Below, piece by piece: positions 13,665 to 57,485 of a stretch of 64,000 nt of DNA. Numbering within the stretch: position 1 is the first letter of the stretch; each line of letters opens with the position of its first letter. Under the pieces are notes generated by a model. It made no database searches and had not been told where the DNA came from. It saw only the letters and a program-made list of their open reading frames with translations. The stretch comes from a virus: positions 62,001-126,000 of IMG/VR virus record IMGVR_UViG_3300048838_001106. The stretch is one strand, 5' to 3'. A program made the translations under genes and the position numbers.

Positions 13665-13712
13665 CGAATAATTTTCGTATTGGTCAGCTGACCAATAATA
13701 CTATAAGTATGC

Positions 13713-13742
13713 TTGTATAATTTTGCTTATATTACAATGTAG
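13713..13742 (+). repeat. 30-bp element, copy A
   Basis: Begins TTGTATAATTTTGC and ends TTACAATGTAG; lies inside the left arm of the inverted repeat. Contains TATAAT. Confidence 0.85.
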
Positions 13743-14161
13743 TACGAAAATTCGAAGTCATTGAAATATAACGATTCATGTGTTTTTGAGTGCAGTATTG
13801 GCAGGTAAGCCGAAATACACATAGGGGTAGTAGTAGAGCGGAGAAGAGAGAAAATAGGGGTAGAGGAGGAGGAGTAATAGAAAGAAGAATATTCAATAAA
13901 TGTCATTTATTACATGTCAATTCTTCTTTACGTCTTCGAATTTTTCTTAGGTTAAAGAACCCCATCCTATCAAAACCCACCCTACATAAGATTTACATAC
14001 CTGAATTGATTTTGATTGTAAATACTGATCAGATGTATAGTGGTGTTGTTTTCAAAGTTCATTCTTCTCTCTATACGTGCCTATGTGTTTTTGGGCTCGG
14101 CGTGTTTTTGGGCTAAAAAAGTACGTGAATCGTTATATTTCAATGACTTCGAATTTTCGTA

Positions 14162-14191
14162 CTACATTGTAATATAAGCAAAATTATACAA
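14162..14191 (-). repeat. 30-bp element, copy A' (reverse)
   Basis: Reverse-complement copy of element A, carried by the right arm of the inverted repeat. Confidence 0.85.
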
Positions 14192-14456
14192 GCATACTTA
14201 TAGTATTATTGGTCAGCTGACCAAGATGCAAGTTTTTTCATAGCAAATCGGTGTGTTCGACACCGATTGCACTGTGAAATTTTCTCAAAAAAAGAGCCAA
14301 CAAAGTGTATTCCAGGGTGTATTCAAGGCTGTTTTGAGTCGAAAATGGCCTGTACGGAGCGTTAAACGGTGCTCCAGCGGTGCATCTGAAAGTGCTTGTA
14401 CGGCGCTAAACGACGCACTACGTGCAGGTAGACCATGGGCATAAGGTATTATTTTT

Positions 14457-14502
14457 GCTTTACAGAAGGGGGGTCCGGGGGCCGCACACCCCCTGAGAAA
14501 GC
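14457..14502 (+). other. G-rich hairpin in the gene-poor block
   Basis: GCTTT (14457-14461) pairs with AAAGC (14498-14502), CAG with CTG, and GGGGT with ACCCC around a GC-rich loop. There is no T tract after it, so it is not a simple terminator. Confidence 0.45.
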
Positions 14503-14720
14503 AAAGAAAGACAACGACTTGCGATGCATTGGCTATGAGGACTGGCAGGCAATGCCTGGCGCTGAAGGCGGTGGTTTCGGTGAAATGTCGGTGTGCCGCT
14601 AAGTGCGCGTGTTTTGTGATTTAGTACAACACAACGGCGATGCGTTAAGCGATGGCCTGATTTGTCCGTCATGTGTCGGCGTATTTTGCCTGTTTTTCCA
14701 CAAGACGACATTGAAATCTT

Positions 14721-14767
14721 TTGTATAATTTTGCTTATATTACAATGTAGGTCGAAATTTCAGATGT
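14721..14767 (+). repeat. 30-bp element, copy B, with 17-bp extension
   Basis: The first 30 bases are identical to copy A. The full 47 bases match copy C with two differences; the shared extension reads GTCGAAATTTCAGATGT. Confidence 0.88.
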
Positions 14768-15006
14768 TGTTGTTTTCATTGTGGAAAAAAAATCACGTCG
14801 CTTCGTTGTATAAGCCTTTTTATAGTGACAGCACCAAAAACAGCCTCAAAAACAGGCGAGAAAATGGCGCCTTTTTGTACGGCGGTTTTAGCCCGAAACA
14901 GGCGGTTTTTGGTCGATTTGACCTGTTTTGACCGGCGACTCGTGGTCAGCAGTTTACAACTGTCGTCGGATTTGTGCCGCCATCGCTGGTGCGCTCGAGA
15001 GTTTAC

Positions 15007-15053
15007 TTATACAATTTTGCTTATATTACAATGTAGGTCGAAATTTCAGATGT
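15007..15053 (+). repeat. 30-bp element, copy C, with 17-bp extension
   Basis: Matches copy B over 47 bases with two differences, both within the first six bases. Lies about 150 bases before the next gene. Confidence 0.88.
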
Positions 15054-15139
15054 AGTTGAAACCTAACATGTATTATTTTTGGACGCCCTATTTAGTGGCA
15101 ATTTCGTGCCTTCAGACGCCGAGTTTGCCCCTGTATAGT

Positions 15140-29473: not shown

Positions 29474-29539
29474 AGCACGATATTGCAAAGTAAACCGAGC
29501 GTGTGCTAAGCAAACGCAAACACAACACGAGGTTTTTCG

Positions 29540-30055
29540 ATGAGTCCAGAAGGATACGCGTCGTGGTGCTTAAACACCATCCGAAGAGACATCTCTGAAG
29601 ACCGAATTCCACTGTACATTAACTTTTCTGGCCGCACTGAACTAGGTGAAGTCCAGGAACACATTGTTCGAGGCATGCGCGGCGCTGAAAAGCACGACGA
29701 CAGTAAGCTCAAGGAAGAATTGGGGGATGTGGCGTTCCTGTTGTACGCCAAATGCGCGCTGACACGCGCAAATCTCGCCCATGACTGGGACACATCTGGA
29801 AAAATACAGAAAAGACCCGGAATCTCGCGCATCATAAACACACTTTGCCTTCTTAACGAGGCTGACCAGTGCGCTGAGCGCCTCTCAGAGGCATTTCGTC
29901 GCGATTCACGTCCCGAAGTGTACGTAGAGTACCTCGATCGCCTATGCACCTGTCTAGGTTGGAGCATGCCAGACGTTGTTTTCCTGAATCGCGTCAAAAT
30001 CGTGCAGCGAATCTCCAATGGGACACTAATTAACAAGGAAAACAGGACAACATGA
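29540..30055 (+). CDS. MazG-like nucleotide pyrophosphohydrolase
   Basis: A 171-residue protein. ELGEVQEHIVRGMRGAEKHD (about residues 34-53) followed by LKEELGDVAFLLYAK carries the MazG ExxE...EExxD metal-binding pattern. LGWSMPDVVFLNRVKIVQR fits the C-terminal helix of the family. It would cleave NTPs or dNTPs to NMP and PPi. A second member of the broader family (24696-25013) lies 5 kb upstream. First gene after the terminator at 29473. Confidence 0.8.
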   Translation: MSPEGYASWCLNTIRRDISEDRIPLYINFSGRTELGEVQEHIVRGMRGAEKHDDSKLKEELGDVAFLLYAKCALTRANLAHDWDTSGKIQKRPGISRIINTLCLLNEADQCAERLSEAFRRDSRPEVYVEYLDRLCTCLGWSMPDVVFLNRVKIVQRISNGTLINKENRTT

Positions 30056-30360
30056 CTCAAGACGACTACTGGGACATCACAACTACACAGGCTGCGGGCA
30101 TTCCATTGTGGAAAGTCGGCAAACGAACAACAATCAAAACAACTCACCACAAAGAGGACACCGAAATCATGGCAAACCCAGACAAAGTCTACTTTTTGGC
30201 AAAAAAAGACGAGCTCAGACAGTTTCGTGAACAATGTGAGCACGTCGCGAAGTCAATGCACGCGCACAGCTCTTTTCATCTGCACAAAGATGTCTTGAAC
30301 GACTATGAACGCCTTCTGTTGGAAGAAGAGGAGCGCCGTGACACAAGATCCGAGACTTGA
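30052..30360 (+). CDS. Hypothetical protein
   Basis: A 102-residue protein, ATGA-coupled to the MazG-like gene. An internal start (ATG 30169) would give a 63-residue helical protein; I keep the longer form. No motif recognised. Confidence 0.65.
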   Translation: MTQDDYWDITTTQAAGIPLWKVGKRTTIKTTHHKEDTEIMANPDKVYFLAKKDELRQFREQCEHVAKSMHAHSSFHLHKDVLNDYERLLLEEEERRDTRSET

Positions 30361-30868
30361 AGACCTCCGACGGCAGCTAAAAGCCGGATTATTCACGCGA
30401 GACATTGCAAAACTATGGAGGTGCTCACAAGCGACTGTCAATTACTGGATTCGCAAAGATCCAGAGCTTGTTCGGCTCAGGGACCGCACGTTTCCGGCGA
30501 GAAAACGCACCACACGCAAAGTAAGCGACTTTATGTTGCAGAAATACATAGAAGATGGCTGGACACACAAGCGCATAGCTGCGTTTACAGGCATGCACCT
30601 GTCCACGATACAGCGACGCATGAAAAAGGCACCACACCTTGAAATCTTGTACGAAGAAACCGCGCATCTTCGAATAAACCGAGCAAAACTTCGAAAAAGC
30701 GCGAGAGAACAGCATGTACCAGAAATTGCCAGGCTCACGTGTCAAGGCTACACCTTAAAAGACATTGCGAAGATGCGTGGCCTCACCAAAAGCAAAGTAA
30801 CTCACATAAAAAGAGAATTCAGAGAATTGTTTCTGCATTACATGGAGACATTCAATGGCCAGACATGA
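30338..30868 (+). CDS. Triple helix-turn-helix DNA-binding protein
   Basis: A 176-residue basic protein from GTG 30338 behind GAGGAGCGCC. Three repeats of about 50-60 residues each hold a resolvase/homeo-like HTH: FTRDIAKLWRCSQATVNYW, THKRIAAFTGMHLSTIQRR, and TLKDIAKMRGLTKSKVTHIK. Three HTH units in tandem with nothing else suggest a sequence-specific regulator or a terminator/packaging DNA-binding protein. It immediately precedes the block of genes with their own promoters. Confidence 0.82.
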   Translation: MTQDPRLEDLRRQLKAGLFTRDIAKLWRCSQATVNYWIRKDPELVRLRDRTFPARKRTTRKVSDFMLQKYIEDGWTHKRIAAFTGMHLSTIQRRMKKAPHLEILYEETAHLRINRAKLRKSAREQHVPEIARLTCQGYTLKDIAKMRGLTKSKVTHIKREFRELFLHYMETFNGQT

Positions 30869-31106
30869 TTGGACACAGGAACACCTGTTCGGCGCATACA
30901 TCATGAAAACAATGGAGATACTTTCTCTGAGCGAAGAACAGAACAACTCTGAAGAAGCTGACAAGATCCGAGAAGACATGGAAAATCTCTGGAATGACAT
31001 GGAACCAGAAACGGTAACTAAACTGCGCCCGGTATTGGGGCAACTAGGAGCGTTCTCTATTGTCCAGGACACTGTGCTTCATTACACAACCTTGTTTCAC
31101 AAATGA
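30855..31106 (+). CDS. Small acidic protein
   Basis: An 83-residue helical acidic protein overlapping the triple-HTH gene by 14 bases. No family recognised; the pairing could be functional. Confidence 0.7.
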   Translation: MARHDWTQEHLFGAYIMKTMEILSLSEEQNNSEEADKIREDMENLWNDMEPETVTKLRPVLGQLGAFSIVQDTVLHYTTLFHK

Positions 31107-31154
31107 ATGACACAAAACGGGTATAAGAACTTGTAATGAACAATGGAGTTCATT
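31098..31154 (+). promoter_or_regulatory. Promoter P1 with 5' stem-loop
   Basis: CACAAAT (31098-31104), 17-base spacer, TATAAG within GGTATAAGAA (31120-31129), then a 7-bp stem AATGAAC/GTTCATT (31135-31141 with 31148-31154). It drives the P-loop kinase gene. Confidence 0.72.
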
Positions 31155-31170
31155 TGAGCAAGGAGACAAC

Positions 31171-31695
31171 ATGTTTGTCATTCTTATGCAAGGACTTCCA
31201 GGCTCGGGTAAGTCCACAACCGTCGAGGGCCTTCGCCAGGCCCTTGAACAAAGTGACTACAAAGTAGTCGTCGTCTCCGCAGACGACTACTTTGTAGACG
31301 CATCTGGCGTCTACAACTTCGATCCGTCGAAGATCGTAGACGCCCACGCCCAGTGCCAGCTGAAATTTCAGGTGGCACTGGATAGTGATGAAGTAGAGTG
31401 CATCATCGTCGACAACACCAACACTCAGTGTTGGGAAGCGAAGCCATACGTGGAGATGGCTTCGCGAGTCGACTGCGCCGTCATCGTCGTTGAGGTCCAC
31501 ACAGACCTCGACGACGAGGCGCTCGCCGCGCGTAACACGCACGGCGTACCCGTGGGAGCCATTGCAGCCATGCGAGCACGCATGGAGCCCCTCTGCAGAG
31601 ACGATGCTCCCAGCATCGTCATGGGAGGAACGGTGGTCTCTAGACCCATCGCTACTTCCCGTATCCTGGCAAGCAAGGCTCCCTGGGAGTCTTGA
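31171..31695 (+). CDS. P-loop kinase, N4BP2-like
   Basis: A 174-residue protein. Walker A GLPGSGKST (residues 8-16), SADDYFVD near 36, IVDNTNTQCWEAKPYVEMA (about 80-98) and a late VPVGAIAAMRARM match the AAA/polynucleotide-kinase-like group typified by the kinase domain of N4BP2. Substrates may be 5' ends of nucleic acid or small molecules. Monocistronic between promoter P1 and a terminator. Confidence 0.88.
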   Translation: MFVILMQGLPGSGKSTTVEGLRQALEQSDYKVVVVSADDYFVDASGVYNFDPSKIVDAHAQCQLKFQVALDSDEVECIIVDNTNTQCWEAKPYVEMASRVDCAVIVVEVHTDLDDEALAARNTHGVPVGAIAAMRARMEPLCRDDAPSIVMGGTVVSRPIATSRILASKAPWES

Positions 31696-31722
31696 ATTGC
31701 CACCCCACGCACAGAGAGCCGC

Positions 31723-31764
31723 GCCGCGCATACCTTTCCTCCAGGGTGTGCGCGGCTTTTTTTT
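31723..31764 (+). terminator. Rho-independent terminator
   Basis: GCCGCGCA/TGCGCGGC stem (31723-31730 with 31749-31756) and eight Ts. Confidence 0.88.
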
Positions 31765-31786
31765 CGCATGGAGTAGGGAGATAGTT

Positions 31787-32161
31787 ATGGAATACTCAGA
31801 AAAAACCCACGCCCTCGGTGAGGAGCTGGACAGAATCAGCGAGCCTTACCACAAGGTAAAAGCTCGGCTTGCAGCGCACACCGAGGCCATGGAGCAAAAA
31901 GCGGAAGGGGACATCTTTCATGTTCCGAGCTTTGAAGACATTCTTCTCGCCGCCCGTCTTGAAAGGCGCTACGCAGCGTTACACACGGACTACACCGCGG
32001 CTCTCGAAGCCTACCGCGAAAGCAAGTGGGCCGAAGAGAGGGCGAATCCGGACTACGATCCGGTGGCAGAGTTCTTTGACGGGCTCGAGCTAGACCACCC
32101 TGACACGCAAATCTACTCCTACCGAGTTGGCGGGGAGGATGGGTGGCAGAGGGTTAAGTAG
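31787..32161 (+). CDS. Helical hypothetical protein
   Basis: A 124-residue charged protein, probably coiled coil (RLERRYAALHTDYTAALEAY). Start at ATG 31787 behind AGGGAG. It lies between two terminators with no visible promoter of its own. Confidence 0.75.
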   Translation: MEYSEKTHALGEELDRISEPYHKVKARLAAHTEAMEQKAEGDIFHVPSFEDILLAARLERRYAALHTDYTAALEAYRESKWAEERANPDYDPVAEFFDGLELDHPDTQIYSYRVGGEDGWQRVK

Positions 32162-32206
32162 ATCAGTCGCAAAGCGCTCGAAGGTCTTTAAGGTTCAGCA
32201 CTTTCC

Positions 32207-32232
32207 AGGGACAATTCCGTCCCTCTTTTTTA
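32207..32232 (+). terminator. Rho-independent terminator
   Basis: AGGGAC/GTCCCT with AATTCC loop, then C and seven Ts. Confidence 0.88.
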
Positions 32233-32235
32233 GGT

Positions 32236-32299
32236 CACAAATCGGGGGCATGGAACGGGTATAAGAACATGATCAATCGACACAATTAAGTGTCTGATC
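32236..32299 (+). promoter_or_regulatory. Promoter P2 with 5' stem-loop
   Basis: CACAAAT (32236-32242), 17-base spacer, TATAAG in GGTATAAGAA (32258-32267). The leader has a two-part stem: GATC/GATC and GACAC/GTGTC (32271-32299). Confidence 0.72.
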
Positions 32300-32313
32300 T
32301 ATAAGGAGTTCTT

Positions 32314-32559
32314 ATGTCGAAATTCAATCCTGCAGATTATGAGACGGTTGTGTCCCCTGAGGGGCTTGAGCTAGAGATGGCTCAAGTCGCGATGCGCAGG
32401 GAGGAGGAGCGAAAGCTCTGGCGCCCCCCGCATCCCGACGACTTAGCCGAGATGGAGGAAGAGCGGGAGGAGGAGGCGTACCAGCGCCGTCTACAAATGG
32501 AGGACGAGGCGCTCGAGCGCCACCTAGACCGGCAGCTCTGGAAAGAGCAGCTGGATTAG
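32314..32559 (+). CDS. Small highly charged helical protein
   Basis: An 81-residue protein, mostly Glu/Arg (EMEEEREEEAYQRRLQMEDE), likely one long helix or coiled coil. ATG behind AAGGAG. Own promoter P2. Function unknown. Confidence 0.8.
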   Translation: MSKFNPADYETVVSPEGLELEMAQVAMRREEERKLWRPPHPDDLAEMEEEREEEAYQRRLQMEDEALERHLDRQLWKEQLD

Positions 32560-32583
32560 CTCCTCGGGTTTCCTTCTACACCA

Positions 32584-32604
32584 GCGCTCCTGCGCCTTCT
32601 TTTT
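32584..32604 (+). terminator. Weak terminator
   Basis: GCGC/GCGC stem with TCCT loop followed by CTTCTTTTT. Confidence 0.5.
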
Positions 32605-32608
32605 AGCT

Positions 32609-32640
32609 CACAAATTCCACACCCAATACTGGTGCAAGAA
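32609..32640 (+). promoter_or_regulatory. Degenerate copy of the promoter motif (P3')
   Basis: CACAAAT (32609-32615), exactly 17 bases, then TGCAAG in GGTGCAAGAA (32631-32640). The upstream box and spacing are perfect but the second box has two changes. It lies 37 bases upstream of P3 and may be a decayed or alternative promoter. Confidence 0.4.
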
Positions 32641-32646
32641 GCTGCG

Positions 32647-32708
32647 CAGAAATCGAAGACAAGAGCTGGTATAAGTTTGTGCAGACCATTGAAATAGATC
32701 GATGTCTG
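32647..32708 (+). promoter_or_regulatory. Promoter P3 with 5' stem-loop
   Basis: CAGAAAT (32647-32653), 16-base spacer, TGGTATAAG (32667-32675) giving an extended -10 form. The leader pairs CAGACCAT with ATGTCTG (32682-32708) with one bulge. Confidence 0.65.
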
Positions 32709-32724
32709 ATAATCGGAGCACGAT

Positions 32725-33171
32725 ATGAGTGACGTAAAGAAAGGGTTTAACATCACGGTCGGTGTAGTACTGGCACTGATCTTTGCATTTGTGATTCTCC
32801 CAACAGGAGCCTGTGTGGGGTGCATGGTTCTTGGAGCCGGCTCTGCTGGGGTTGCCGAAGCCAACAGGCAGGTTGAGCAAGAGAAGCTCGGTCCAGAAAT
32901 CGAATTCAGCGGACTGGACTTTAAGGTGATTCCAAAAGGGCAGACAATTAGTGACGTGGCCTACAAGTTCACTGTCGTCAACAATCGCGACACAGAACTT
33001 ACCAAGTCATTCGGTGTCAAATTCCTGGACGCTGAGGGATTTCCCGTCGTTGAAGACACGCTCCTATTTGAGACTATTCCAGCGAGGTCTAGGCGCGTTG
33101 TTACAGGAGCACGCCTGGTGAAAAACCACCTGGCTGAAGCGGCACAGAGCATGAACGTAGAGGAAAAGTAG
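32725..33171 (+). CDS. Membrane-anchored protein
   Basis: A 148-residue protein with one transmembrane segment at residues 9-40 (TVGVVLALIFAFVILPTG) containing a CVGC motif at its outer end, then an extracytoplasmic-looking beta domain (VAYKFTVVNNRDTELTKSF) of the FxxL/LEA-like type. Monocistronic behind P3. It could act in the envelope, for example in exclusion. Confidence 0.78.
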   Translation: MSDVKKGFNITVGVVLALIFAFVILPTGACVGCMVLGAGSAGVAEANRQVEQEKLGPEIEFSGLDFKVIPKGQTISDVAYKFTVVNNRDTELTKSFGVKFLDAEGFPVVEDTLLFETIPARSRRVVTGARLVKNHLAEAAQSMNVEEK

Positions 33172-33176
33172 CACCA

Positions 33177-33232
33177 CAGAAAACCAACACGGCGATCTGG
33201 TATAAGAAGTTGTAATGAACAATGAAGTTCAT
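33177..33232 (+). promoter_or_regulatory. Promoter P4 with 5' stem-loop
   Basis: CAGAAAA (33177-33183), 17-base spacer, TGGTATAAG with GGTATAAGAA at 33199-33208. The leader repeats the P1 leader almost exactly (ATGAAC/GTTCAT, 33215-33232). Confidence 0.7.
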
Positions 33233-33251
33233 ACACACCAATGGAGTTCTT

Positions 33252-33575
33252 ATGAAGATCACTGTGTTCAGACGAAAGCCTTCAACTAAGGCAGAGATGA
33301 TCTCGGCTATCGTCGTTATGGCGATAGCAGGTATTGTAATCTACATCGACGCCCAGGCCGAGAAGGCCGCTTGGGCGTCCCTGCCCAAAAGGCCGGAGCC
33401 CCGTGCTTCGGCTAAAAACACGGCCGACTCGCTCGAGGGTTATGCCCTCGAATTAGAGGAGTGGCTGTGCCGACGAGGCAGGCACGCTCCGGACAATGTC
33501 CGAGCTCACGCGCTCCGCGAGGCGGAGCAGGCACGCCACACGGCGTTCCAGGTAAGGTACATGAGAGCGTCGTGA
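33252..33575 (+). CDS. Single-pass membrane protein
   Basis: A 107-residue protein from ATG 33252 behind TGGAGTTCTT. A transmembrane helix at about 14-31 (MISAIVVMAIAGIVIYI) follows a basic N-terminus, so the charged C-terminal part is probably outside. No family recognised. Confidence 0.75.
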   Translation: MKITVFRRKPSTKAEMISAIVVMAIAGIVIYIDAQAEKAAWASLPKRPEPRASAKNTADSLEGYALELEEWLCRRGRHAPDNVRAHALREAEQARHTAFQVRYMRAS

Positions 33576-33604
33576 GTTGAAACGCCGTGTGGCTAGACTA
33601 GCTC

Positions 33605-33633
33605 AGGAGGTAATTCCACCTCCTCTTTTTTTT
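33605..33633 (+). terminator. Rho-independent terminator
   Basis: AGGAGGT/ACCTCCT with AATTCC loop, then C and eight Ts. The loop is identical to that of the terminator at 32207. Confidence 0.9.
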
Positions 33634-33703
33634 AGATGCCGTCAGATTGCGCGACCCTGATCTCGCAGGTATAACTGCAAAATACGATGTATTAGAGGAA
33701 GAC

Positions 33704-34534
33704 ATGTACAATCTTGGTTTTGCAACCGTTATGAAGACAGCAGGGCTATCTAAGACGGCTGTCACCCTGGATCAACTACGAAAGGCGACCAGTGCTCTGC
33801 AGAAAAACACGACTGTTGTCCGCAGAAGTCTCATGCCCGATGATATTTCTGGGGGATACTCGGGCGTAATTAGGCCCAGGAACCACCTCCCAGAAACCTT
33901 TGGATTGGGACCAAATACGCTGGGAAAAACCAAAGACAAAGACCTAGAAAGTAAGTTACGACAGATATATGGGGATATGTTGGACTGGTATCCCGAGGAA
34001 GATGTGGATCAGGCGCTCCAGGACGCTCTTGCAAGAACCAAGGCCGTGCACCAGCCATTTATGGCAGGCGGTAGGTCTACTATTTATCAGGGAGGAAGCC
34101 CTGCTATATGGATGAAGCACCTTGTCGACAGTGGCGATTTTCCATCCCCTCAAGCGCAAGGATTCCAGAACATGCTTAAATCCGGACCAGGACAGGAGGC
34201 ATTTAATCGGTCTACCCTGCTACATGAAGGGTCCGAAATCGGTAAGCAATTTGGTAAAAGGCTGTTTGAATCTCATTTGTCTACAAGGCCCATGCTCCAG
34301 GATATGAATATCGCAGCTACACTGCGCGGCCCAGGTAGCGAAGCTGCAGGAGCCATCAAAGACCTGCGTGCACCAGAAGTGGCGTCGTTGAACAAGTACG
34401 TTCCGGGCCTGGAGCGTCTAAATCTCGGAGAAAATCGAATTTCTCGCCACGCCCAGAAGCGCATCCAGCAATCTTACGAGCGCAGCCTCGACAGAGAAGG
34501 CGTGAAGGGTATTCCCGGTATTAACGCGCCTTGA
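33704..34534 (+). CDS. Tagged protein 1 (YNLGFATVMKTAGLSKTA)
   Basis: A 276-residue protein; ATG 33704 follows AGAGGAAG, and choosing it places the shared tag YNLGFATVMKTAGLSKTA exactly at the N-terminus. The middle has TLLHEGSEIGKQ, an HExxE-like sequence that might bind metal, but no peptidase family is clear. It is on the + strand and converges with the six tagged genes on the - strand, leaving only 7 bases between stops. Confidence 0.8.
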   Translation: MYNLGFATVMKTAGLSKTAVTLDQLRKATSALQKNTTVVRRSLMPDDISGGYSGVIRPRNHLPETFGLGPNTLGKTKDKDLESKLRQIYGDMLDWYPEEDVDQALQDALARTKAVHQPFMAGGRSTIYQGGSPAIWMKHLVDSGDFPSPQAQGFQNMLKSGPGQEAFNRSTLLHEGSEIGKQFGKRLFESHLSTRPMLQDMNIAATLRGPGSEAAGAIKDLRAPEVASLNKYVPGLERLNLGENRISRHAQKRIQQSYERSLDREGVKGIPGINAP

Positions 34535-34541
34535 CCTGCTT

Positions 34542-35195
34542 TCACATCACCTTCAAGTACTTCGGCGCGATAATCCCAGTAGGCGTGTGAATCGACGCAT
34601 GCGGTACATTTGCCGCGTAGTACCCTTCGTTGTCAGGGTCCTCATAATGCTTCCACAATTCCTCTGGTGTCCGAGCTTGCAGCTCTCGAAGCTCAGCGTC
34701 CTCTAAGAACCGACGCCGCGTGTCTCCGCGACCATCCGGGGTCAGCTCAATCCCGAAGGCACGCGTCTCGGGCTCATCACGCATAAGTGCATCCATGTCG
34801 ACCTGGATTTTTGCGTAATCGTTCTGGCGAAGCGGATGCGCGTCTGCCAGTTGAACCGTGTCCGGAATATCAGAGAACATGACATTCGGGCCTTCAAAGA
34901 CGTCCTTCTCGTAGCCGGCTTGCGTACCCTGAATCGCGGACAGCAAGCGCCCTGTGCGCGTGCCTTTTGCCAGGGCCACGGCCTTCAGCAGCTCAGGGTT
35001 GGCAACCAGCCCTTTGTTCCCCGCAAGGCCGTGCGTCATAATCGAGTCTACCGAGGCAGGCGGCGCGTAGTGATAGACAGGAGCAAGGGGTTGAGGTGTT
35101 GGAGGTGTGACAACAGCAGGCGCAGGCGCAGGAACAACAGCGTCGAGCTCAGCAGTTTTGAGGACCAGGTTGTAGCCTACAGCATAGCTATTCAT
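34542..35195 (-). CDS. Tagged protein 2, ADP-ribosyltransferase-like
   Basis: A 217-residue protein. N-terminal tag SYAVGYNLVLKTAEL, a Pro/Ala linker (residues 22-38), then PVYHYAPPASVDSIMTHGL and a late segment HASIHTPTGIIAPKYLKVM. The YHxxxxxxxxSIxxxGL start is typical of the ART fold (DarT, KptA and related enzymes that use NAD). The catalytic residues cannot be fixed by eye. It is the last gene of the operon and overlaps 35192 by 4 bases. Confidence 0.75.
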   Translation of the reverse strand: MNSYAVGYNLVLKTAELDAVVPAPAPAVVTPPTPQPLAPVYHYAPPASVDSIMTHGLAGNKGLVANPELLKAVALAKGTRTGRLLSAIQGTQAGYEKDVFEGPNVMFSDIPDTVQLADAHPLRQNDYAKIQVDMDALMRDEPETRAFGIELTPDGRGDTRRRFLEDAELRELQARTPEELWKHYEDPDNEGYYAANVPHASIHTPTGIIAPKYLKVM

Positions 35196-36100
35196 CGTTC
35201 AAAGTACCCCAGACCAAGTCTGTCGCGGAGAGCCTGGCCTTCTTCTGCAGTGATATAGAAGCGTCCACCGGGCTGTACTGCGTCTTTGAACTGCGTGCGA
35301 ATCAAGCGGCGCGCTTCGTTCGCCTCGTCACTTATGTTCGGATCATGTTGCATATTTTTAATGTTGTCAAAATACGCGATGCCCGGCCTTTTCACCGTGC
35401 CTATATCGTCTACCATTGGAGAGGCCCAGCTGTTCCCAACCCCTTTTTGCCATGCACGGTCAATCGCCACCTCCGCATTCCATAAGAGGTCTGGGTCGCG
35501 TGCTATGCGATCAGACGTCTCTCGCTCTATTACATGGTTAGGCGACAGTGGCGTATCGAAAGGTAAGGTGGTCTCGGCATGAAAAGGCCGCGTTCGTCCT
35601 CCGAACCCGTCATAACTACTTTGGGTGGGTGCTCCTGTCCAAAGATCCATGTTTTGAAGTTTCCACTTATCTGTGTCGGCTTTTGAGGCGTCCACGTGGG
35701 TGGGGACGTATTCAGGATTTGCGCTGGTAAAGCGTGTTATTTGATGGCCTCGAGGACCACCAACCACATCTTGAACTCTGAGCCCAACCGGCACTTCCTC
35801 ACCCAACACACCTGGAATGACTTGCTTCGAAGGGAGTATTGGGAACGCATGACGCCAGCCTTTGCCTGCCAAAGCACCCAAGGCAGCTGTAGCCGCGCCG
35901 CCTACAACAGGCTTCGTCCAGTCGGGTTTTCGGTCGTTGACGAGCGTGTCTATTCCGAAACTTCCAGCGCCTATCGCACCGCCAGCAGCCCCAAGCCCGA
36001 TCGCATTCCGCGTAGCAGGGTGTAAGTCGTGCCACTTACTGAGGTCGAGCTTCGCAATCTTCATCAAGTGGGCGTACCCAGATTCGTAGTGTCTATTCAT
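35192..36100 (-). CDS. Tagged protein 3
   Basis: A 302-residue protein. Tag: HYESGYAHLMKIAKLDLSKW. Next comes a Gly/Ala-rich stretch that could cross or enter a membrane (IGLGAAGGAIGAGSFGI and VVGGAATAALGALAG). The C-terminal half is globular, ending RFYITAEEGQALRDRLGLG; the domain is not recognised. Confidence 0.78.
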   Translation of the reverse strand: MNRHYESGYAHLMKIAKLDLSKWHDLHPATRNAIGLGAAGGAIGAGSFGIDTLVNDRKPDWTKPVVGGAATAALGALAGKGWRHAFPILPSKQVIPGVLGEEVPVGLRVQDVVGGPRGHQITRFTSANPEYVPTHVDASKADTDKWKLQNMDLWTGAPTQSSYDGFGGRTRPFHAETTLPFDTPLSPNHVIERETSDRIARDPDLLWNAEVAIDRAWQKGVGNSWASPMVDDIGTVKRPGIAYFDNIKNMQHDPNISDEANEARRLIRTQFKDAVQPGGRFYITAEEGQALRDRLGLGYFER

Positions 36101-36104
36101 AATC

Positions 36105-37532
36105 TCAAAACTCCGGCTTCTTGCCTTTCGATTTGGAAAAGTCTTCCATCAATTCCAGGCCGCCATCTTTTGTTGGCCGCCAGCGTTTGGTCAAAGTAGG
36201 TCTTAGAGCACCTTCGGTGACTACTTTTTCGTAGTAGGGGGAGGTGTCAACGTGGGTGGGGTCTAACATCTTCGACGAGGCAATTTCCTCAGGAGACAGG
36301 TATCGAGAGTCCCTGGCTACGTGCGCGTGCCAGGGACTTTGCTCTTTAGGGGGGACTTTCGCAGGGTCAAACTCGAACACAGACGCTCTATTATGTGTGC
36401 CTTCGGCGTATTGCCGGGCCACGTCTGGATGCCCTGTCACCCACGTAGGATCTTTAGGCTCTACAACCTGGTACGGACTCTGAGCTCTGTATGCACGAGA
36501 TGCCGGGTCGAACATACTGTGTGACTTAAAAATCTCACCCGTCGAATAATTCAACGTTTGAATATCTGGATCTATGGGAGAGACGGGTGTAGCTCTCGTG
36601 TTCATGATGTATTTTCTCAGGCGAGAGCGCGCAGAATCCGCTTCGAGTTTCGCCTCCCTTGCAGCAGCAAATATCGCGGCCATATCTTCTCGAGGCATTC
36701 TCTGAGGATTTCTTACAGCGTTGTGCACCGTGTCGAGCACAGGATTGAGCGCCGAAGAGGACGTCCGAGACTCACTAACCCGGAGTTTGTCCGAGAGAGT
36801 TGCCAGCGCCTCAGCTGGAAACGCGGATAGTACATCTCCGGAATCTTGCAAATAAGAATCTACCAGGAAGGAGATGTCTTGTGCCTTCTCTTCTGGGGAC
36901 ATGACGCGCTCTAGGGTCCGCACAACATCGTGCGGCGACGCATCGTCTGGCAACGCCCTCAGATCGCGCTGAGCGTCAGGGTGCGCAAAACTAAACAACC
37001 TGGCTTGCTGAAGATTAGCAGGATCTGAGGATTGCCTAATCCACGAGGCTGGAACAGGGATGTTCTCAGCCCCAAGAATGCCAACAGCCTCTTCTGGCTT
37101 GAGAGGCCGATCGTGTAGCAGCTTATTGACACTGTATTGGATATTAGGGTTCAGGGCCTCGCCAGCAGACGCGTGAAGATGGTCTTCCCGAAGCGGGTTC
37201 CGCGGCAAGAAAGACTTCAAATACTTCTCAGGCTCATAAGTTTTAGACAATATGATCTGTTCAATGTCTTCAGACACGGGCAATCTTCGGGCAGTGTCAG
37301 CTAAAGGCGAGAACCGCGAATCTTGCGAACTTGTCCATTCGCGAATCGCAGATGGAACGCCTTCCCAGTCGCCCGTGCGTCTCCCCCACTGCAATCTCTC
37401 TGCAGACACAGGTGCATTGGGGTGCTCGATGTCCAGGAGCTTCTTCAAGAGCCTTGTGTTGATTGCCGTCTTTTCCAGGCCGGCCACTTTGACCACCGAA
37501 TTGTATCCATCGATATAACTTGACCGCATCAA
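36105..37532 (-). CDS. Tagged protein 4, possible ART-like C-terminus
   Basis: A 475-residue protein. Tag: SSYIDGYNSVVKVAGLEKTA. A long helical middle is followed near residue 375 by TWVTGHPDVARQYAEG and RASVFEFDP, a pattern seen in ART-like and other toxin-type domains (xTxxxxVAxxYA ... VxxxD). The assignment is weak. Overlaps the upstream gene by 4 bases. Confidence 0.75.
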   Translation of the reverse strand: MMRSSYIDGYNSVVKVAGLEKTAINTRLLKKLLDIEHPNAPVSAERLQWGRRTGDWEGVPSAIREWTSSQDSRFSPLADTARRLPVSEDIEQIILSKTYEPEKYLKSFLPRNPLREDHLHASAGEALNPNIQYSVNKLLHDRPLKPEEAVGILGAENIPVPASWIRQSSDPANLQQARLFSFAHPDAQRDLRALPDDASPHDVVRTLERVMSPEEKAQDISFLVDSYLQDSGDVLSAFPAEALATLSDKLRVSESRTSSSALNPVLDTVHNAVRNPQRMPREDMAAIFAAAREAKLEADSARSRLRKYIMNTRATPVSPIDPDIQTLNYSTGEIFKSHSMFDPASRAYRAQSPYQVVEPKDPTWVTGHPDVARQYAEGTHNRASVFEFDPAKVPPKEQSPWHAHVARDSRYLSPEEIASSKMLDPTHVDTSPYYEKVVTEGALRPTLTKRWRPTKDGGLELMEDFSKSKGKKPEF

Positions 37533-38626
37533 GTCCTCCTGGAAGGCCGCTGCACGGCGGTGGCAACCGCAGGCAGTGCCTCGGTGTGCGCGGCATACGG
37601 CGCTGGCACTGTTTCAGCGCGCGGACCTTGTCTGTGCACTTTCTTTACTGGTATCTCTCCTCGATGCATGTAAGCACGCATGTCCGATGCTGAGCTGGAC
37701 AGCCTTGTGAGCGGGGTGGGGCCGCCCCACTGTGCGCGCTGCAAGTTCGGGAAGTAGCCAGATTTTGGATTAGCCGCGCCCTCCTCTACGTGGATACCAT
37801 GACCCGTTTGCGGAGAATACACGCCATCCGACGGGCGCGTCGGTATGAAGTCCACAACCTTTGATCTTCCGTCCGCTGTTACAGCAATGTTGTTGCCGTG
37901 ACTAGACCGCTGCCATGTGTCAGCGAAGTCCTCGCTGCGAAATCCTGGGTGCGCCCGGTCTAGAGACCTACGAAGCGCCGCCTCGTCATAGTGCGTGTTG
38001 CCGCCTGTCTGTGCGTGAGGCACGTACTCCGTGTAGTGAGTTCGATACTCCTTGCCGGTGACTGGACTGGTGACCGTCTTTGCGCCGTACAGCTCTGTAA
38101 GAGGATTGTCCTCCTTGGCGAAGCGGCGTTGCGATGCCTGCATGATTTGTTCTTTTCGCCTCACGCCCTTAGGAGAGTAGATGGCCGAGTCCGGGTTGTA
38201 CGTCTTGCGTGCGACCAGTTGACCTTTGTGAGCCACTAGATCTGCGATGCCTTCACCGCCAGTTCCCAGGTGACCGACGTATTCCCTGGGAGAGTAGCCT
38301 CGCTGCTGCATGGTAGCTAGAAGCTGGTTCGCCTTGTCAGGAGAGGCACCTGCCTGGATGCGGTCAGGAGCAAGGCGAGTCTTTTTTAGAGGCGTTTGTG
38401 GTGCGGTGGCGCCAGGAAACGCCGCAGCAGTCTCCGCGTACGCTGAAGGCTGTGTTTCGGCTACGGTCGAAGCGTACCTAGTCGGCGCTGCTTTGTTGAC
38501 ATAAGATGGCTCCGTGCTCTTTAACAGAGACCGCAATATCTTTGTCTCTCGCCTGGCCGCTTCTTTTTCGAGCAGCCCTGCAGCAGCGTATACAGCGTCC
38601 ATGCCGTCGAAGTAGTTTCTGGTCAT
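37529..38626 (-). CDS. Tagged protein 5, protein-kinase-like
   Basis: A 365-residue protein. Tag (diverged): RNYFDGMDAVYAAAGLLEKE. Residues about 117-262 follow the order of a protein kinase fold: Gly loop HLGTGGEGIADLV (119-131), candidate ATP-binding Lys in VARK (Lys141), hinge-like YTEYVPHA (198-205), catalytic-loop-like HGNN (243-246), and VVDF (257-260) as the metal-binding DFG equivalent. The Asp of HRD is not seen, so it may be atypical or inactive. The C-terminus is Pro/Arg-rich. Confidence 0.75.
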   Translation of the reverse strand: MTRNYFDGMDAVYAAAGLLEKEAARRETKILRSLLKSTEPSYVNKAAPTRYASTVAETQPSAYAETAAAFPGATAPQTPLKKTRLAPDRIQAGASPDKANQLLATMQQRGYSPREYVGHLGTGGEGIADLVAHKGQLVARKTYNPDSAIYSPKGVRRKEQIMQASQRRFAKEDNPLTELYGAKTVTSPVTGKEYRTHYTEYVPHAQTGGNTHYDEAALRRSLDRAHPGFRSEDFADTWQRSSHGNNIAVTADGRSKVVDFIPTRPSDGVYSPQTGHGIHVEEGAANPKSGYFPNLQRAQWGGPTPLTRLSSSASDMRAYMHRGEIPVKKVHRQGPRAETVPAPYAAHTEALPAVATAVQRPSRRT

Positions 38627-39166
38627 TTACTTGGTCCGGGAGTACAAATAGGTAGCAGCTGCACCAGGAGCACCGACGTAGAGGGCCGCGTCAGACACGG
38701 ACACGCCTTTTCTGGCCGTGTCTTTTAAGTCACGGAGCATCTTAGATCCCTTCGCCCCAACACTTTTTGCTGGCAGCCTGGCGACCTTCATTATGGTGTT
38801 GTAGCCATCACTGTAGCTGCTTTCTTTGCTGAAATGGTCGTGCAGTTTGTTTACGCCGTAAACTGTGGCGCCTATACCACCCAAGATTCCTGCGCCGGCG
38901 AGTCTTCGCCCCTTCATGGTCATCTTCCTGTTAGCGATGGCCTTGTGCCCGGCGTCTTCCATCGGAATGCCCTCGTCCACCATTTTCCTGATGGCCCTGG
39001 ACGAGTCCTTGTCGCGCTTGGTGTCAACTGTCATGTTGAGGTACTTTAAGCCAGCCGCATTTGCTGCCGTGCCCCCAATGGCCGCCGCCGCACCAGGAGG
39101 CAAAGCAGATTCTTCTTGGTACGTGGCATATGCTGGCGCAGGGCCGTAGCCCAATTTTGTTGTCAT
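38627..39166 (-). CDS. Tagged protein 6, tag internal
   Basis: A 179-residue protein. The same tag SSYSDGYNTIMKVARLPAKS occurs not at the start but at residues 115-134, after a hydrophobic Gly-rich segment (RRLAGAGILGGIGATVYGV). A second small Ala-rich segment ends the protein (ALYVGAPGAAATYLY). It may be a membrane protein, a fusion of two short proteins, or evidence that the tag is a docking rather than a leader sequence. Confidence 0.72.
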   Translation of the reverse strand: MTTKLGYGPAPAYATYQEESALPPGAAAAIGGTAANAAGLKYLNMTVDTKRDKDSSRAIRKMVDEGIPMEDAGHKAIANRKMTMKGRRLAGAGILGGIGATVYGVNKLHDHFSKESSYSDGYNTIMKVARLPAKSVGAKGSKMLRDLKDTARKGVSVSDAALYVGAPGAAATYLYSRTK

Positions 39167-39183
39167 CGTGGTTCTCGCCGTGG

Positions 39184-39675
39184 TTAGATCTCGTCAGCTG
39201 CCTGTAATCCTGCCCAGATACCGTGACGCGCCGCGCCTTCACCCGCTACACCACCTAGCAGACCTGCTATTACGTTAGGGCTTAGCGGGATTTTGACATT
39301 TCGAATTTTAATTTCGTCTGGAAGATTCCCACGCAGAGCATGTCTGGCGATGGCCGACACCACTTGATCGGTGCCTTCTCCGGCGACTTCGCCGCCGATT
39401 GCAGCCCCAAGTTGGTACTTCAAGTCCAGATCTCTGGTGCCGTACATAGCCCCCAGTCCAGGCGCCATGCGCGCACCAACGTTAAACGGGGACAGCTTTC
39501 TGCCAGTTAGGGCGTGCGCTGCTTCTAGAGGGAACTGCGCATAGAAGCCAGCGGACCGGCCAGCCACAGCGTCTTCGGTAGCTTTGTCCAAATCAGGGCC
39601 GAAAGGCCAGGCGGCTGTTTTTGTTGGGAGGCCCGCGTGCGCCAGCACCAGATTGAACCCTGTATGATACGTCAC
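39184..39675 (-). CDS. Tagged protein 7
   Basis: A 163-residue protein from GTG 39675 with GGAG upstream. Tag: YHTGFNLVLAHAGLPTKTAA. The rest is Gly/Ala-rich with hydrophobic turns (IAGLLGGVAGEGAARHG), possibly membrane-interacting. It is the first gene of the minus-strand operon; a 128-base gap separates it from the divergent gene 39804. Confidence 0.75.
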   Translation of the reverse strand: MTYHTGFNLVLAHAGLPTKTAAWPFGPDLDKATEDAVAGRSAGFYAQFPLEAAHALTGRKLSPFNVGARMAPGLGAMYGTRDLDLKYQLGAAIGGEVAGEGTDQVVSAIARHALRGNLPDEIKIRNVKIPLSPNVIAGLLGGVAGEGAARHGIWAGLQAADEI

Positions 39676-44829: not shown

Positions 44830-46161
44830 ATGGGTGATGACTACACAGTGAACACAGAGAACCTCCGCCTGGTAAAAATTGAAGCCGTCTACACGTCTTA
44901 CGCTATTGCGCACCAGAATGACGTGCTGGAAGATGTGATTCCTGATGAATCCTTTTCTGAGCCGAGCTTTAGGTATGAAGAAGTTAATGCCATGGAACTG
45001 CCCATATCCGCAGATCAGGTTGTGTACAGTGACAGCGTGCGTTCCGATCTGAAGTACATCAGCGAACGAGCCGCAACGCAAGGCGTGCCGGAATTCTGCG
45101 ATGATGTGAAGGAAGACATTGTATCTGCTCTCCGACTCGAGGCATTCTACATGCACAGCAAGAGATTTAACCAAGAGCTACTGCTAGAGCAAGGAGGCAC
45201 AGTGAATACACGACCGACACTGAAACGAGGAGATGCGGGCACGGCGGTGCAGGACCTGCAGACATACCTAAACCAGATTGCGCAACACACAGGTGCTCGC
45301 GTTGACGGCGCGCCTCTTCGAAAGGATGGTTCATTCGGACCGGCCACAGAGAAAGCGGTGCTGTCGTTTCAAACGGGCCAGGATCTATACGCGGACGGGG
45401 TTGTTGGGCCTGTCACATGGGGCAAAATGGATGAGGTCTGGAGCAGGCACATCAACCCGGTAGCTCAGCCGGCCAAGGACAAGCCTGAGCCGACTCAAAC
45501 TGTCGTGCAGTGGCAGACCACGTATAAAGAGGGGTACAACAGGTTCACCCTTCGAACAGACGTGGCTCGAATCTTCCAAGACAAGATTCTAGACCCGATG
45601 AAGAGCGTTGGCGCACTCATGACCTCTTCAGGGTCAAAGAGGGCGCTCACTGCGAAGGTAGGGTCCAACAGGAGTGCCACCAGCTTTCACTATCTCCTGA
45701 CGGCATTTGATCTTTATGTCTACTCGGCGATGGTCGACCCGCACACTGACCCATTTGTGGTTACCGTTGACCCAAATAATCCACGGTATTGGGTAGTATG
45801 GGCACGCGTGGGAGCCACGGGATCTGGCAGACACAGGACCCTGGACGCGGTGACGTACGAGAAGTCCGGCGACGCAGATTACCCGCAAAAGATTGTGAAG
45901 ACAGCAGGGTACTTCCTGAACTTCACAGAACTTTGCGCAGAAGCAGGGTTTAAGCCGATTCCGTGGCGACCTGCATTTATGGACCCAAAAACCAAGTCGA
46001 ATGGTGCTGCAGAGTGGTGGCACTTCCAATACGAGGCCGATTTGGTTCGGGGGGTTACCACATACGGGTCGCAGTTGTTGCGTGTATACACACAGAAACA
46101 GCTGAAGGACACCCCGCCGTGGAAATACCGAGACCTGAAATTTGGCACGCAGTGGAGATGA
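44830..46161 (+). CDS. Endolysin: peptidoglycan-binding + M15 peptidase
   Basis: A 443-residue protein. Residues about 125-205 form a PG_binding_1 domain (LKRGDAGTAVQDLQTYLNQ ... GSFGPATEKAVLSFQ ... ADGVVGPVTWGKM). The C-terminal part has SATSFHYLLTAFDLY and AAEWWHFQYE, matching the SxHxxGxAxD and ExWH zinc-ligand motifs of M15 / VanY-type DD- or LD-peptidases. The N-terminal 120 residues are unassigned and unusually long for an endolysin, so it may be virion-associated. Confidence 0.85.
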   Translation: MGDDYTVNTENLRLVKIEAVYTSYAIAHQNDVLEDVIPDESFSEPSFRYEEVNAMELPISADQVVYSDSVRSDLKYISERAATQGVPEFCDDVKEDIVSALRLEAFYMHSKRFNQELLLEQGGTVNTRPTLKRGDAGTAVQDLQTYLNQIAQHTGARVDGAPLRKDGSFGPATEKAVLSFQTGQDLYADGVVGPVTWGKMDEVWSRHINPVAQPAKDKPEPTQTVVQWQTTYKEGYNRFTLRTDVARIFQDKILDPMKSVGALMTSSGSKRALTAKVGSNRSATSFHYLLTAFDLYVYSAMVDPHTDPFVVTVDPNNPRYWVVWARVGATGSGRHRTLDAVTYEKSGDADYPQKIVKTAGYFLNFTELCAEAGFKPIPWRPAFMDPKTKSNGAAEWWHFQYEADLVRGVTTYGSQLLRVYTQKQLKDTPPWKYRDLKFGTQWR

Positions 46162-46167
46162 TATTTG

Positions 46168-46190
46168 TGCGCACCGTGCGCATTTTTCTT
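46168..46190 (+). terminator. Terminator after endolysin
   Basis: TGCGCA/TGCGCA stem with CCG loop and TTTTTCTT. Confidence 0.75.
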
Positions 46191-46221
46191 ATTTGAATGT
46201 GCCTGTAGTTGTGGCATGGTC

Positions 46222-46246
46222 AATCACCTAATTAGCGGAGGTGATT
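46222..46246 (+). promoter_or_regulatory. Hairpin sequestering the ribosome site of 46247
   Basis: AATCACCT (46222-46229) pairs perfectly with AGGTGATT (46239-46246), burying most of the strong site GGAGGTGATT just before GTG 46247. The hairpin could throttle translation. Confidence 0.55.
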
Positions 46247-46546
46247 GTGGCTACGGACATAACAGAACAACAAAACAATACGGGAGGAGACAAAGAAGAG
46301 GAGTGCACGGTCCTTTCAAAAGAGGAACTCCTTGCGCACATGGAAGCCGCGGAGAACGCACCGGAAATGAAAGTGCTGAAGGAAATCACCAAGGAGTACC
46401 TGGAGAGACGAGAGAAGGAAGCCAGGATTGATCGTATCATGACGTTGTATGCCAACGGCATGCCAATGACAGTTGATGACTGGAACACAGTAAGGGCCTC
46501 AGTCGGCTTGTCTGCGTTACCACCACTTGAAGCGTCCAAGACGTAA
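46247..46546 (+). CDS. Small acidic hypothetical protein
   Basis: A 99-residue protein from GTG 46247; GTG 46241 overlaps the ribosome site. Charged helices (LKEITKEYLERREKEARID). Its leader can hide the ribosome site in a hairpin. Confidence 0.75.
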   Translation: MATDITEQQNNTGGDKEEECTVLSKEELLAHMEAAENAPEMKVLKEITKEYLERREKEARIDRIMTLYANGMPMTVDDWNTVRASVGLSALPPLEASKT

Positions 46547-46559
46547 AAAGGAGAAGACA

Positions 46560-46952
46560 ATGAGTGAAGAAACAACGGAAACAACGGAAACAACACCCAA
46601 CGATGGCGCATCTGAAGCAGTTGCTGAGACGTCTGAGACAAAAACACGAGCGAAGCGAGGAGCTAACACAGAGCTCAAGTTTGCCGTGACTGTGAGCGCC
46701 AATGGCACGGACTACATCATGGTTCCTCCTCAGGCTGACCACGAATCGATGACCGAAGTGCGTGCGGCACTAAAGGAATACGCTGAGTCGAACGGTAACG
46801 CGGCTCAGGAGTTTTACAACAGTATTGTGGATTTGTTGCCGCACGAAAACAGTGAAGAGATGTCTCTTCACTTCGCCGTGGTACGGTATTTGGGGCGGTA
46901 CGTGGTCAAGACAGAAACTATTCGAACAACTACACTCGCCGAAGTCAAATGA
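46560..46952 (+). CDS. Hypothetical protein with Thr/Glu-rich N-terminus
   Basis: A 130-residue protein behind AAAAAGGAGAAG. The first 40 residues are low complexity (EETTETTETTPNDG), followed by a compact domain (LKFAVTVSANGTDYIMV). No family recognised. Convergent with 46945 (8-base overlap). Confidence 0.75.
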   Translation: MSEETTETTETTPNDGASEAVAETSETKTRAKRGANTELKFAVTVSANGTDYIMVPPQADHESMTEVRAALKEYAESNGNAAQEFYNSIVDLLPHENSEEMSLHFAVVRYLGRYVVKTETIRTTTLAEVK

Positions 46953-57115: not shown

Positions 57116-57317
57116 AGATCAAGAAGACAAGCTCAAGGCGTTTGAAGAACTTGTGAAGAAAGCGCAGCAGTGCGTGGTGGGAGCAGTGTATTCCAAGTAT
57201 GACCAGTCTTCGATCAATTACGACGAAGCTAGAGTAGCCTTTCTAAAGGCAAGCACAGAGTTTCTTCGTGTGTGTGTTCCGGCGGACACAGATTACAACA
57301 ATCAAGCTATACAATAA
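57102..57317 (+). CDS. Small helical protein
   Basis: A 71-residue protein overlapping the HU-like gene by 14 bases. Helical, charged. No family recognised. Confidence 0.7.
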   Translation: MNIPKDQEDKLKAFEELVKKAQQCVVGAVYSKYDQSSINYDEARVAFLKASTEFLRVCVPADTDYNNQAIQ

Positions 57318-57342
57318 CTGAGCTCCGCAAGTGGTATAAGAA
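57311..57342 (+). promoter_or_regulatory. Promoter P5 (P1-P4 type)
   Basis: TGGTATAAG with GGTATAAGAA at 57333-57342 in extended -10 form; the upstream box ACAATAA (57311-57317) is a poor match, 17 bases away. Confidence 0.5.
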
Positions 57343-57348
57343 TATGGT

Positions 57349-57485
57349 AGAGCAATCACGCACTGCCATTTTCAGCCAGAGGCGCACATGTTTGCAGCAA
57401 CAACAACTTGGATCGAAATCGAGCCGCCGCCAGAAGCGTAGGTTCAACAAAGACAAGAAAAAAGCGTTTACGGCGTAAACGCTTT
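57349..57485 (+). ncRNA. Candidate small RNA (about 140 nt)
   Basis: Between promoter P5 and a strong terminator there is no long gene. The only frame with a ribosome site (AGAGG) is a 17-codon one at ATG 57389, MFAATTTWIEIEPPPEA. Either a small RNA or a short peptide could be the product. Confidence 0.4.

What the first reader, a model, noticed from the sequence alone, without database searches (positions are those of the whole stretch)
31098..33232. Bipartite phage promoter family with a stem-loop right after it
Four sites (P1-P4) share CA(C/G)AAA(T/A)-N16/17-TATAAG inside GGTATAAG(A/T)(A/T), each followed 4-7 bases later by a different-sequence but similarly placed stem-loop and then a ribosome site. 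A fifth degenerate copy (32609-32640) keeps the exact 17-base spacing. The -35-like box is not the sigma70 consensus, so an altered host RNA polymerase or phage sigma-like factor may read it. Compensating sequences in the stems imply selection on the structure, e.g. mRNA stability.
Basis: seen in the sequence. Interest (0 to 1): 0.75.

Follow-up and report, generated by a model that had tools for sequence, protein, structure and literature searches.

The report
Phage-RNA-polymerase promoters with leader hairpins
A large bacterial virus carries nine copies of a two-part promoter, most of them starting an RNA that opens with a hairpin; the same promoter recurs across a neglected group of phages that encode their own RNA polymerase plus a sigma-like factor, so it is probably the address that this viral polymerase reads.

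Summary
GGTATAAG occurs 5 times in the window against 0.76 expected, always on the + strand. Consensus: CA(C/G)AAA-N16-18-(G/T)G(G/T)TATAAG-N4-TG; the downstream TG is invariant (9/9). The phage encodes a split multisubunit RNA polymerase and a sigma70-family protein. Relatives sharing this polymerase (Salmonella phage Arash, Vibrio phage D69, IMG/VR contigs) mostly carry the motif, often 12-30 copies on one strand, opposite to structural and RNAP genes; several contigs show no clear enrichment. In Arash 22 of 27 sites lie 15-75 nt before an annotated start (7% expected). Phage YerA41, with a distant RNAP, shows no enrichment. Leaders fold better than shuffles here (z -3.8) and in several, not all, relatives; two orthologous pairs show compensatory stem changes. 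In Arash, RNAP and the sigma orthologue were found in virions (PMC10585845). Best reading: promoters of a phage-encoded sigma-RNAP holoenzyme, probably virion-carried, making mRNAs many of which begin with a protective 5' hairpin. Start sites, polymerase assignment, timing and mRNA stability remain inferred.

The parts
31098..31133 (+). Promoter P1: CACAAAT 31098-31104, GGTATAAG 31120-31127, TG 31132-31133; upstream box overlaps the end of ORF 30855-31106
31135..31154 (+). P1 leader hairpin (7-bp stem, 6-nt loop)
   Evidence: predicted fold
31171..31695 (+). 174-aa P-loop kinase-like protein (AAA_33) downstream of P1
31723..31756 (+). terminator-like hairpin with T run
32207..32224 (+). terminator-like hairpin just before P2
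32236..32271 (+). Promoter P2: CACAAAT 32236-32242, GGTATAAG 32258-32265, TG 32270-32271
32271..32299 (+). P2 leader hairpin (two-part stem)
   Evidence: predicted fold
32314..32559 (+). 81-aa acidic protein downstream of P2
32609..32644 (+). Degenerate promoter copy: CACAAAT, GGTGCAAG 32631-32638, TG 32643-32644; 60 nt or less before P3
   Evidence: score 19.4, best non-member
32647..32681 (+). Promoter P3: CAGAAAT 32647-32653, GGTATAAG 32668-32675, TG 32680-32681
32682..32708 (+). P3 leader hairpin
   Evidence: predicted fold
32725..33171 (+). 148-aa protein with hydrophobic N-terminal segment, downstream of P3
33177..33212 (+). Promoter P4: CAGAAAA 33177-33183, GGTATAAG 33199-33206, TG 33211-33212
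33212..33234 (+). P4 leader hairpin (same core stem as P1)
   Evidence: predicted fold; repeat D3
33252..33575 (+). small protein with hydrophobic segment downstream of P4
33605..33624 (+). terminator-like hairpin with T run
57310..57346 (+). Fifth promoter in the window: TACAATA 57310-57316, GGTATAAG 57333-57340, TG 57345-57346
57346..57367 (+). leader hairpin of the fifth promoter
   Evidence: predicted fold
57388..57441 (+). 17-aa micro-ORF MFAATTTWIEIEPPPEA after the fifth promoter
   Evidence: read; partner in a relative

Best explanation
The sites are promoters of a phage-encoded transcription system. The phage encodes a beta/beta'-N fusion (genome 150411-155243), a beta'-C subunit (146983-149910) and a sigma70-family protein (44959-46857). 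The sigma protein would recognise CA(C/G)AAA and (G/T)G(G/T)TATAAG-N4-TG; transcription would start around the TG, 5-8 nt after TATAAG. In most of the nine members the transcript then begins almost at once with a short hairpin of variable sequence, ahead of the ribosome site, most likely shielding the 5' end from pyrophosphatase/RNase E-type decay. By analogy with the virion content of the relative Arash, the holoenzyme may be carried in the particle and read these promoters early, firing genes encoded on the strand opposite to the structural genes. Shown: motif, strand bias, position before genes (in Arash), clade conservation, encoded RNAP and sigma, leader-fold excess in several genomes, two compensatory pairs. 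Inferred: which polymerase reads it, start site, timing, stability function.
For: 9 full sites on +, 0 on -; 5 vs 0.76 expected in window; RNAP and sigma genes with intact NADYDGD motif; same motif, strongly one-stranded, in most records sharing this RNAP (Arash 2/31, D69 4/24, G013 3/31, G014 31/1, G017 3/30) with conserved columns not used to pick sites; 22 of 27 Arash sites 15-75 nt before annotated starts, p 1.6e-21; no enrichment in YerA41; leader folds z -3.8 (G000), -4.8 (G014), -5.0 (G015), -2.8 (D69); compensatory pairs; RNAP and sigma gp10 in Arash virions (PMC10585845).
Against: No transcript data. Several RNAP-bearing records lack clear enrichment (G005, G008, G010, G016, G018, G020). 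No sigma homologue found in G021 although it has the motif (the record may be incomplete). Leader-fold excess is absent in G006 and weak in Arash and G013. Only nine sites serve a plus strand with many more genes, so other promoters must exist. Sigma region 4 is divergent (only 1 of 10 homologues passes the Pfam region 4 model).
Confidence: 0.65

Rival explanations
1. The promoters are read by host RNA polymerase, with a host sigma factor or with the phage sigma-like protein bound to host core; the phage RNAP serves other (late) promoters.
For: TATAAG and a 16-18 nt spacer resemble bacterial promoter geometry, and P3 and P4 carry an extended TGG before TATAAG; many phages use a sigma with host RNAP (PMC7824862).
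Against: No sigma70-consensus match at the sites; the motif follows one phage-RNAP lineage across hosts as different as Salmonella and Vibrio and is not enriched in YerA41.
Confidence: 0.22
2. The hairpins are not for stability: they act as attenuators or early terminators, or as sites for an RNA-binding regulator.
For: A few leaders look like intrinsic terminators (D69 L176:2532, G021 L189:11429, G000 155865).
Against: Most G000 stems have no T run after them and stem sequences differ from site to site.
Confidence: 0.2
3. The sites are recent duplications of one cassette and their likeness has no functional meaning.
For: P1 and P4 share 34 nt at 94%; the 155276 and 155399 sites also resemble each other across the spacer.
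Against: Other sites share only the boxes and the TG, while spacers, stems and genes differ; the boxes recur in phages whose RNAP is 36-64% identical.
Confidence: 0.04

Closest known systems
Early promoters of phiKZ/AR9-type jumbo phages, read by a virion multisubunit RNAP (PMC7598289)
   Same: Phage-encoded multisubunit RNAP; a conserved AT-rich box near -10 before gene sets; RNAP in virions (shown for the relative Arash)
   Different: Here a second conserved upstream box, a downstream TG, and an encoded sigma70-family protein; those phages are reported to lack sigma (PMC7824862, PMC13282480)
Bacterial sigma70-type promoters
   Same: Two boxes, 16-18 nt spacing, TATAA core
   Different: Upstream box CAnAAA instead of TTGACA, G instead of T at the last -10 position, conserved TG just downstream
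N4 virion RNAP promoters with hairpins (from general knowledge)
   Same: Promoter associated with a hairpin
   Different: N4 hairpin is part of the promoter, upstream of the start; here it lies at or after the start and its sequence varies
5' stabilising leader hairpins, ompA type (from general knowledge)
   Same: Hairpin at or near the mRNA 5' end before the ribosome site, sequence free to vary
   Different: Stability not measured here; coupled to one promoter class

Membership tests
Host sigma70 promoter | -35 TTGACA / -10 TATAAT consensus | tested here: not met
   scan of 29500-34500 lists no match at P1-P4
phiKZ/AR9-type early promoter | phage-encoded multisubunit RNAP | tested here: met
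phiKZ/AR9-type early promoter | single conserved motif near -10, no sigma homologue | tested here: not met
   second box conserved; sigma70-family protein encoded
phiKZ/AR9-type early promoter | early transcription by a virion RNAP | not testable with these tools
   virion RNAP and sigma reported for Arash only (PMC10585845)
N4 virion RNAP promoter | hairpin upstream of the start as recognition element | tested here: not met
   G000 upstream 34 nt no more foldable than shuffles, z +0.5
sigma70 family (the phage protein) | regions 2 to 4 of sigma70 | tested here: met
   profile aligns with RpoS over regions 2-4, E 3e-12; region 3 in 10 of 10; region 4 divergent
5' stabilising leader hairpin | stable stem at the transcript 5' end | tested here: inconclusive
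   fold excess in G000 and some relatives, but start sites are inferred
5' stabilising leader hairpin | longer mRNA half-life when intact | not testable with these tools
   needs decay measurements

The most novel reading that the evidence does not exclude
A lineage of phages injects a complete phage-made holoenzyme, multisubunit RNAP core plus a sigma70-family factor (here fused to a roughly 390-residue N-terminal extension), that reads its own two-box promoter class and gives many transcripts a 5' hairpin: a multisubunit-RNAP phage system that uses sigma, unlike phiKZ and AR9.
Probability: 0.45. Interest if true: 0.8.

Novelty: new variant of a known kind. Interest (0 to 1): 0.62.

Why it matters
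Reviews describe phages with multisubunit RNAPs as lacking sigma and having single-box early promoters. A clade with an isolated member (Arash) in which RNAP, sigma and a clear two-box promoter go together makes sigma use by a viral multisubunit RNAP directly testable, gives a promoter map for a group whose genomes are mostly unannotated, and offers a natural collection of promoter-linked 5' hairpins for studying mRNA protection.

Tried and rejected
sigma70 promoter scan: no match at the sites. Known RNA family in 29500-34500: none. Upstream hairpin as part of the promoter (N4 type): not in G000. Late promoter motif before minus-strand genes: upstream sequences inspected by eye, nothing obvious, no formal search. 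Second sigma of Arash (gp196) in this record: no match, which the tool warns is not conclusive. Sigma homologue in G021: none found by tblastn; that 118-kb record may be incomplete. Literature: the Arash paper has no occurrence of 'promoter'; searches for the motif and for phage promoter-hairpin pairs found nothing relevant. A leader-fold test over 75 mixed sites gave only a small mean shift (mean z -0.55); I then tested genome by genome, where the excess is concentrated in some genomes, so the per-genome values are a second look at overlapping data.

Full report
CHECK OF THE OBSERVATION. The window is bases 62001-126000 of a 156,269-base IMG/VR virus record, G000. The four sites are present as described. 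GGTATAAG occurs 5 times in the window, all on the + strand; 100 dinucleotide shuffles average 0.76 and none reaches 5. In the record GKTATAAG-N4-TG occurs exactly 9 times on + and never on -: T of TATAAG at genome 20318, 93122 (P1), 94260 (P2), 94670 (P3), 95201 (P4), 119335 (window 57335), 155276, 155399, 155865. The upstream box is CA(C/G)AAA(T/A) in most, with CAAAAAA, TACAATA and CCGAAAC in one site each; spacer 16-18. TG at 4 nt after TATAAG is invariant. The matrix was trained on the nine, so their own scores are not independent evidence; the strand bias, the gap and the relatives are.

THE PHAGE HAS ITS OWN RNA POLYMERASE AND A SIGMA. A 1610-aa protein (genome 150411-155243, minus) carries beta domains followed by the beta' N-terminal half, and a 975-aa protein (146983-149910) the beta' C-terminal part. 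The catalytic NADYDGD motif is intact. A GNAT-like insert at residues about 601-710 is absent from the three relatives aligned. A 632-aa protein (44959-46857) ends in a sigma70-family domain: a profile of it and nine homologues matches RpoS at E 3e-12 over regions 2-4, all ten carry sigma region 3, and a predicted model, of low global confidence (pTM 0.42), matches sigma factors best in the PDB.

THE MOTIF FOLLOWS THIS POLYMERASE LINEAGE. The RNAP has relatives in Salmonella phage Arash, Vibrio phages D69/D148/D181 and many IMG/VR contigs. In whole-record counts GKTATAAG is strongly one-stranded in most of them: Arash 2/31, D69 4/24, G013 3/31, G014 31/1, G017 3/30, G009 2/18, G015 14/0, G021 12/1, G004 8/0, G012 5/0; reversed-pattern controls are mostly 0-6 per strand, though 10/6 in D69. 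It is not universal: G008, G010 and G020 have one site each, and G005, G016 and G018 do not clearly exceed the control. In loci around the RNAP gene, columns not used for picking sites are conserved: TTCAATAA-like sequence about 17 nt upstream and T/TG then A a few bases downstream. Of the ten genomes read in full or in large part (G000, G001, G006, G009, G013, G014, G015, G021, Arash, D69), a sigma homologue is found in all but G021; G021 is a 118-kb record that may be incomplete. In Arash 22 of 27 promoter-strand sites lie 15-75 nt before an annotated gene or tRNA start, against 6.9% of positions (binomial 1.6e-21). Yersinia phage YerA41, whose RNAP is only distantly related, has 4/4 with control 11/13. 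A site next to and divergent from the RNAP gene is shared by G000 and its closest relative G001; further contigs have a motif just upstream of RNAP.

STRAND AND GENES. In G000 the RNAP, sigma and most structural genes are on minus and all nine sites on plus; in Arash the structural genes and RNAP are mostly on plus and the sites on minus. Downstream genes in the window are small: a P-loop kinase-like protein, an acidic 81-aa protein and two small proteins with hydrophobic segments. Terminator-like hairpins lie between some of them, giving promoter-leader-gene-terminator units.

LEADERS. If TATAAG is -12 to -7, the start falls at about the TG and the stems begin within a few bases of it. In G000 the 34 nt from the TG fold better than shuffles (z -3.8), and so in G014 (-4.8), G015 (-5.0), D69 (-2.8), G021 (-2.75) and, on three sites only, G001 (-2.8); G009 is weaker (-2.0), Arash (-1.6) and G013 (-1.2) weak, G006 (+0.6) shows nothing. 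An earlier pooled test on 75 sites gave a mean z of only -0.55. These tests include every promoter-strand GKTATAAG, some of which are coding chance matches. Stem sequences vary from site to site; in G000 the 155399 and 155865 leaders fold further from the start than the others. Two orthologous leaders show compensatory changes: Arash versus G013, A-U to C-G within a 10-bp stem, and contigs L046 versus L066, A-U to G-C. Two pairs are suggestive, not a covariation test. P1 and P4 share one stem sequence.

MECHANISM. The simplest reading is that the phage sigma directs the phage core to these boxes. In Arash the RNAP subunits gp206 and gp216 and the sigma gp10 (homologous to the G000 sigma) were detected in virions by mass spectrometry; the authors offer early transcription or carry-over as explanations (PMC10585845). 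That makes an injected holoenzyme and early timing plausible for the group, but for G000 this is analogy. The hairpins most likely protect 5' ends; attenuation in a few cases cannot be excluded.

COMPARISON. phiKZ and AR9 early promoters are single AT-rich motifs near -10 (PMC7598289), and such phages are described as lacking sigma (PMC7824862; PMC13282480). The present set has two boxes and a sigma. It is therefore filed as a new variant of phage-RNAP promoters, not as a member of the phiKZ/AR9 kind. It fails the sigma70 and N4 tests.

LIMITS. No transcript data; host unknown; record completeness unknown; the fold search rests on a modest model; absence of a sigma in G021 and of the second Arash sigma in G000 is not proof of absence. 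The literature searched is open-access PubMed Central only, so earlier descriptions elsewhere cannot be excluded.

Noticed in passing
L010:4959-6857 (-), genome 44959-46857: The sigma-like protein has a roughly 390-residue N-terminal extension absent from Arash gp10 and D69 (229-234 aa); part of it is related to window 36105-37532 (phmmer 1e-22) and looks to me ADP-ribosyltransferase-like, which was not tested.
   Followed up: partly
L013:4411-9243 (-), residues about 601-710: A GNAT acetyltransferase-like domain is inserted in the beta part of the RNA polymerase of this phage and is missing from the three relatives aligned.
   Followed up: no
window 57388-57441; G001 L192 downstream of 3659: Micro-ORFs of 17 and 31 aa that follow the promoter in both phages share W(I/L)EIEPP.
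   Followed up: no
window 33647-39675: Several ORFs, mostly minus strand, begin with a shared motif like Y..G(Y/F)..V(L/M)K.AGL.KTA, perhaps a packaging or processing tag.
   Followed up: no
G009 and G014 loci (L145-L154, L136-L144): The upstream 34 nt fold far better than shuffles (z -8.4 and -4.7): terminator-like hairpins with T runs overlap the promoter spacer and upstream box, like fused terminator-promoter units.
   Followed up: partly
window about 13700-15100 (genome 75700-77100): AT-rich repeats with TATAAG on both strands and near-identical inverted segments around 75702-77025.
   Followed up: no
L013:10020-10269, genome about 156020-156269: Tandem repeat coding for a proline/threonine-rich protein runs to the end of the record.
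   Followed up: no
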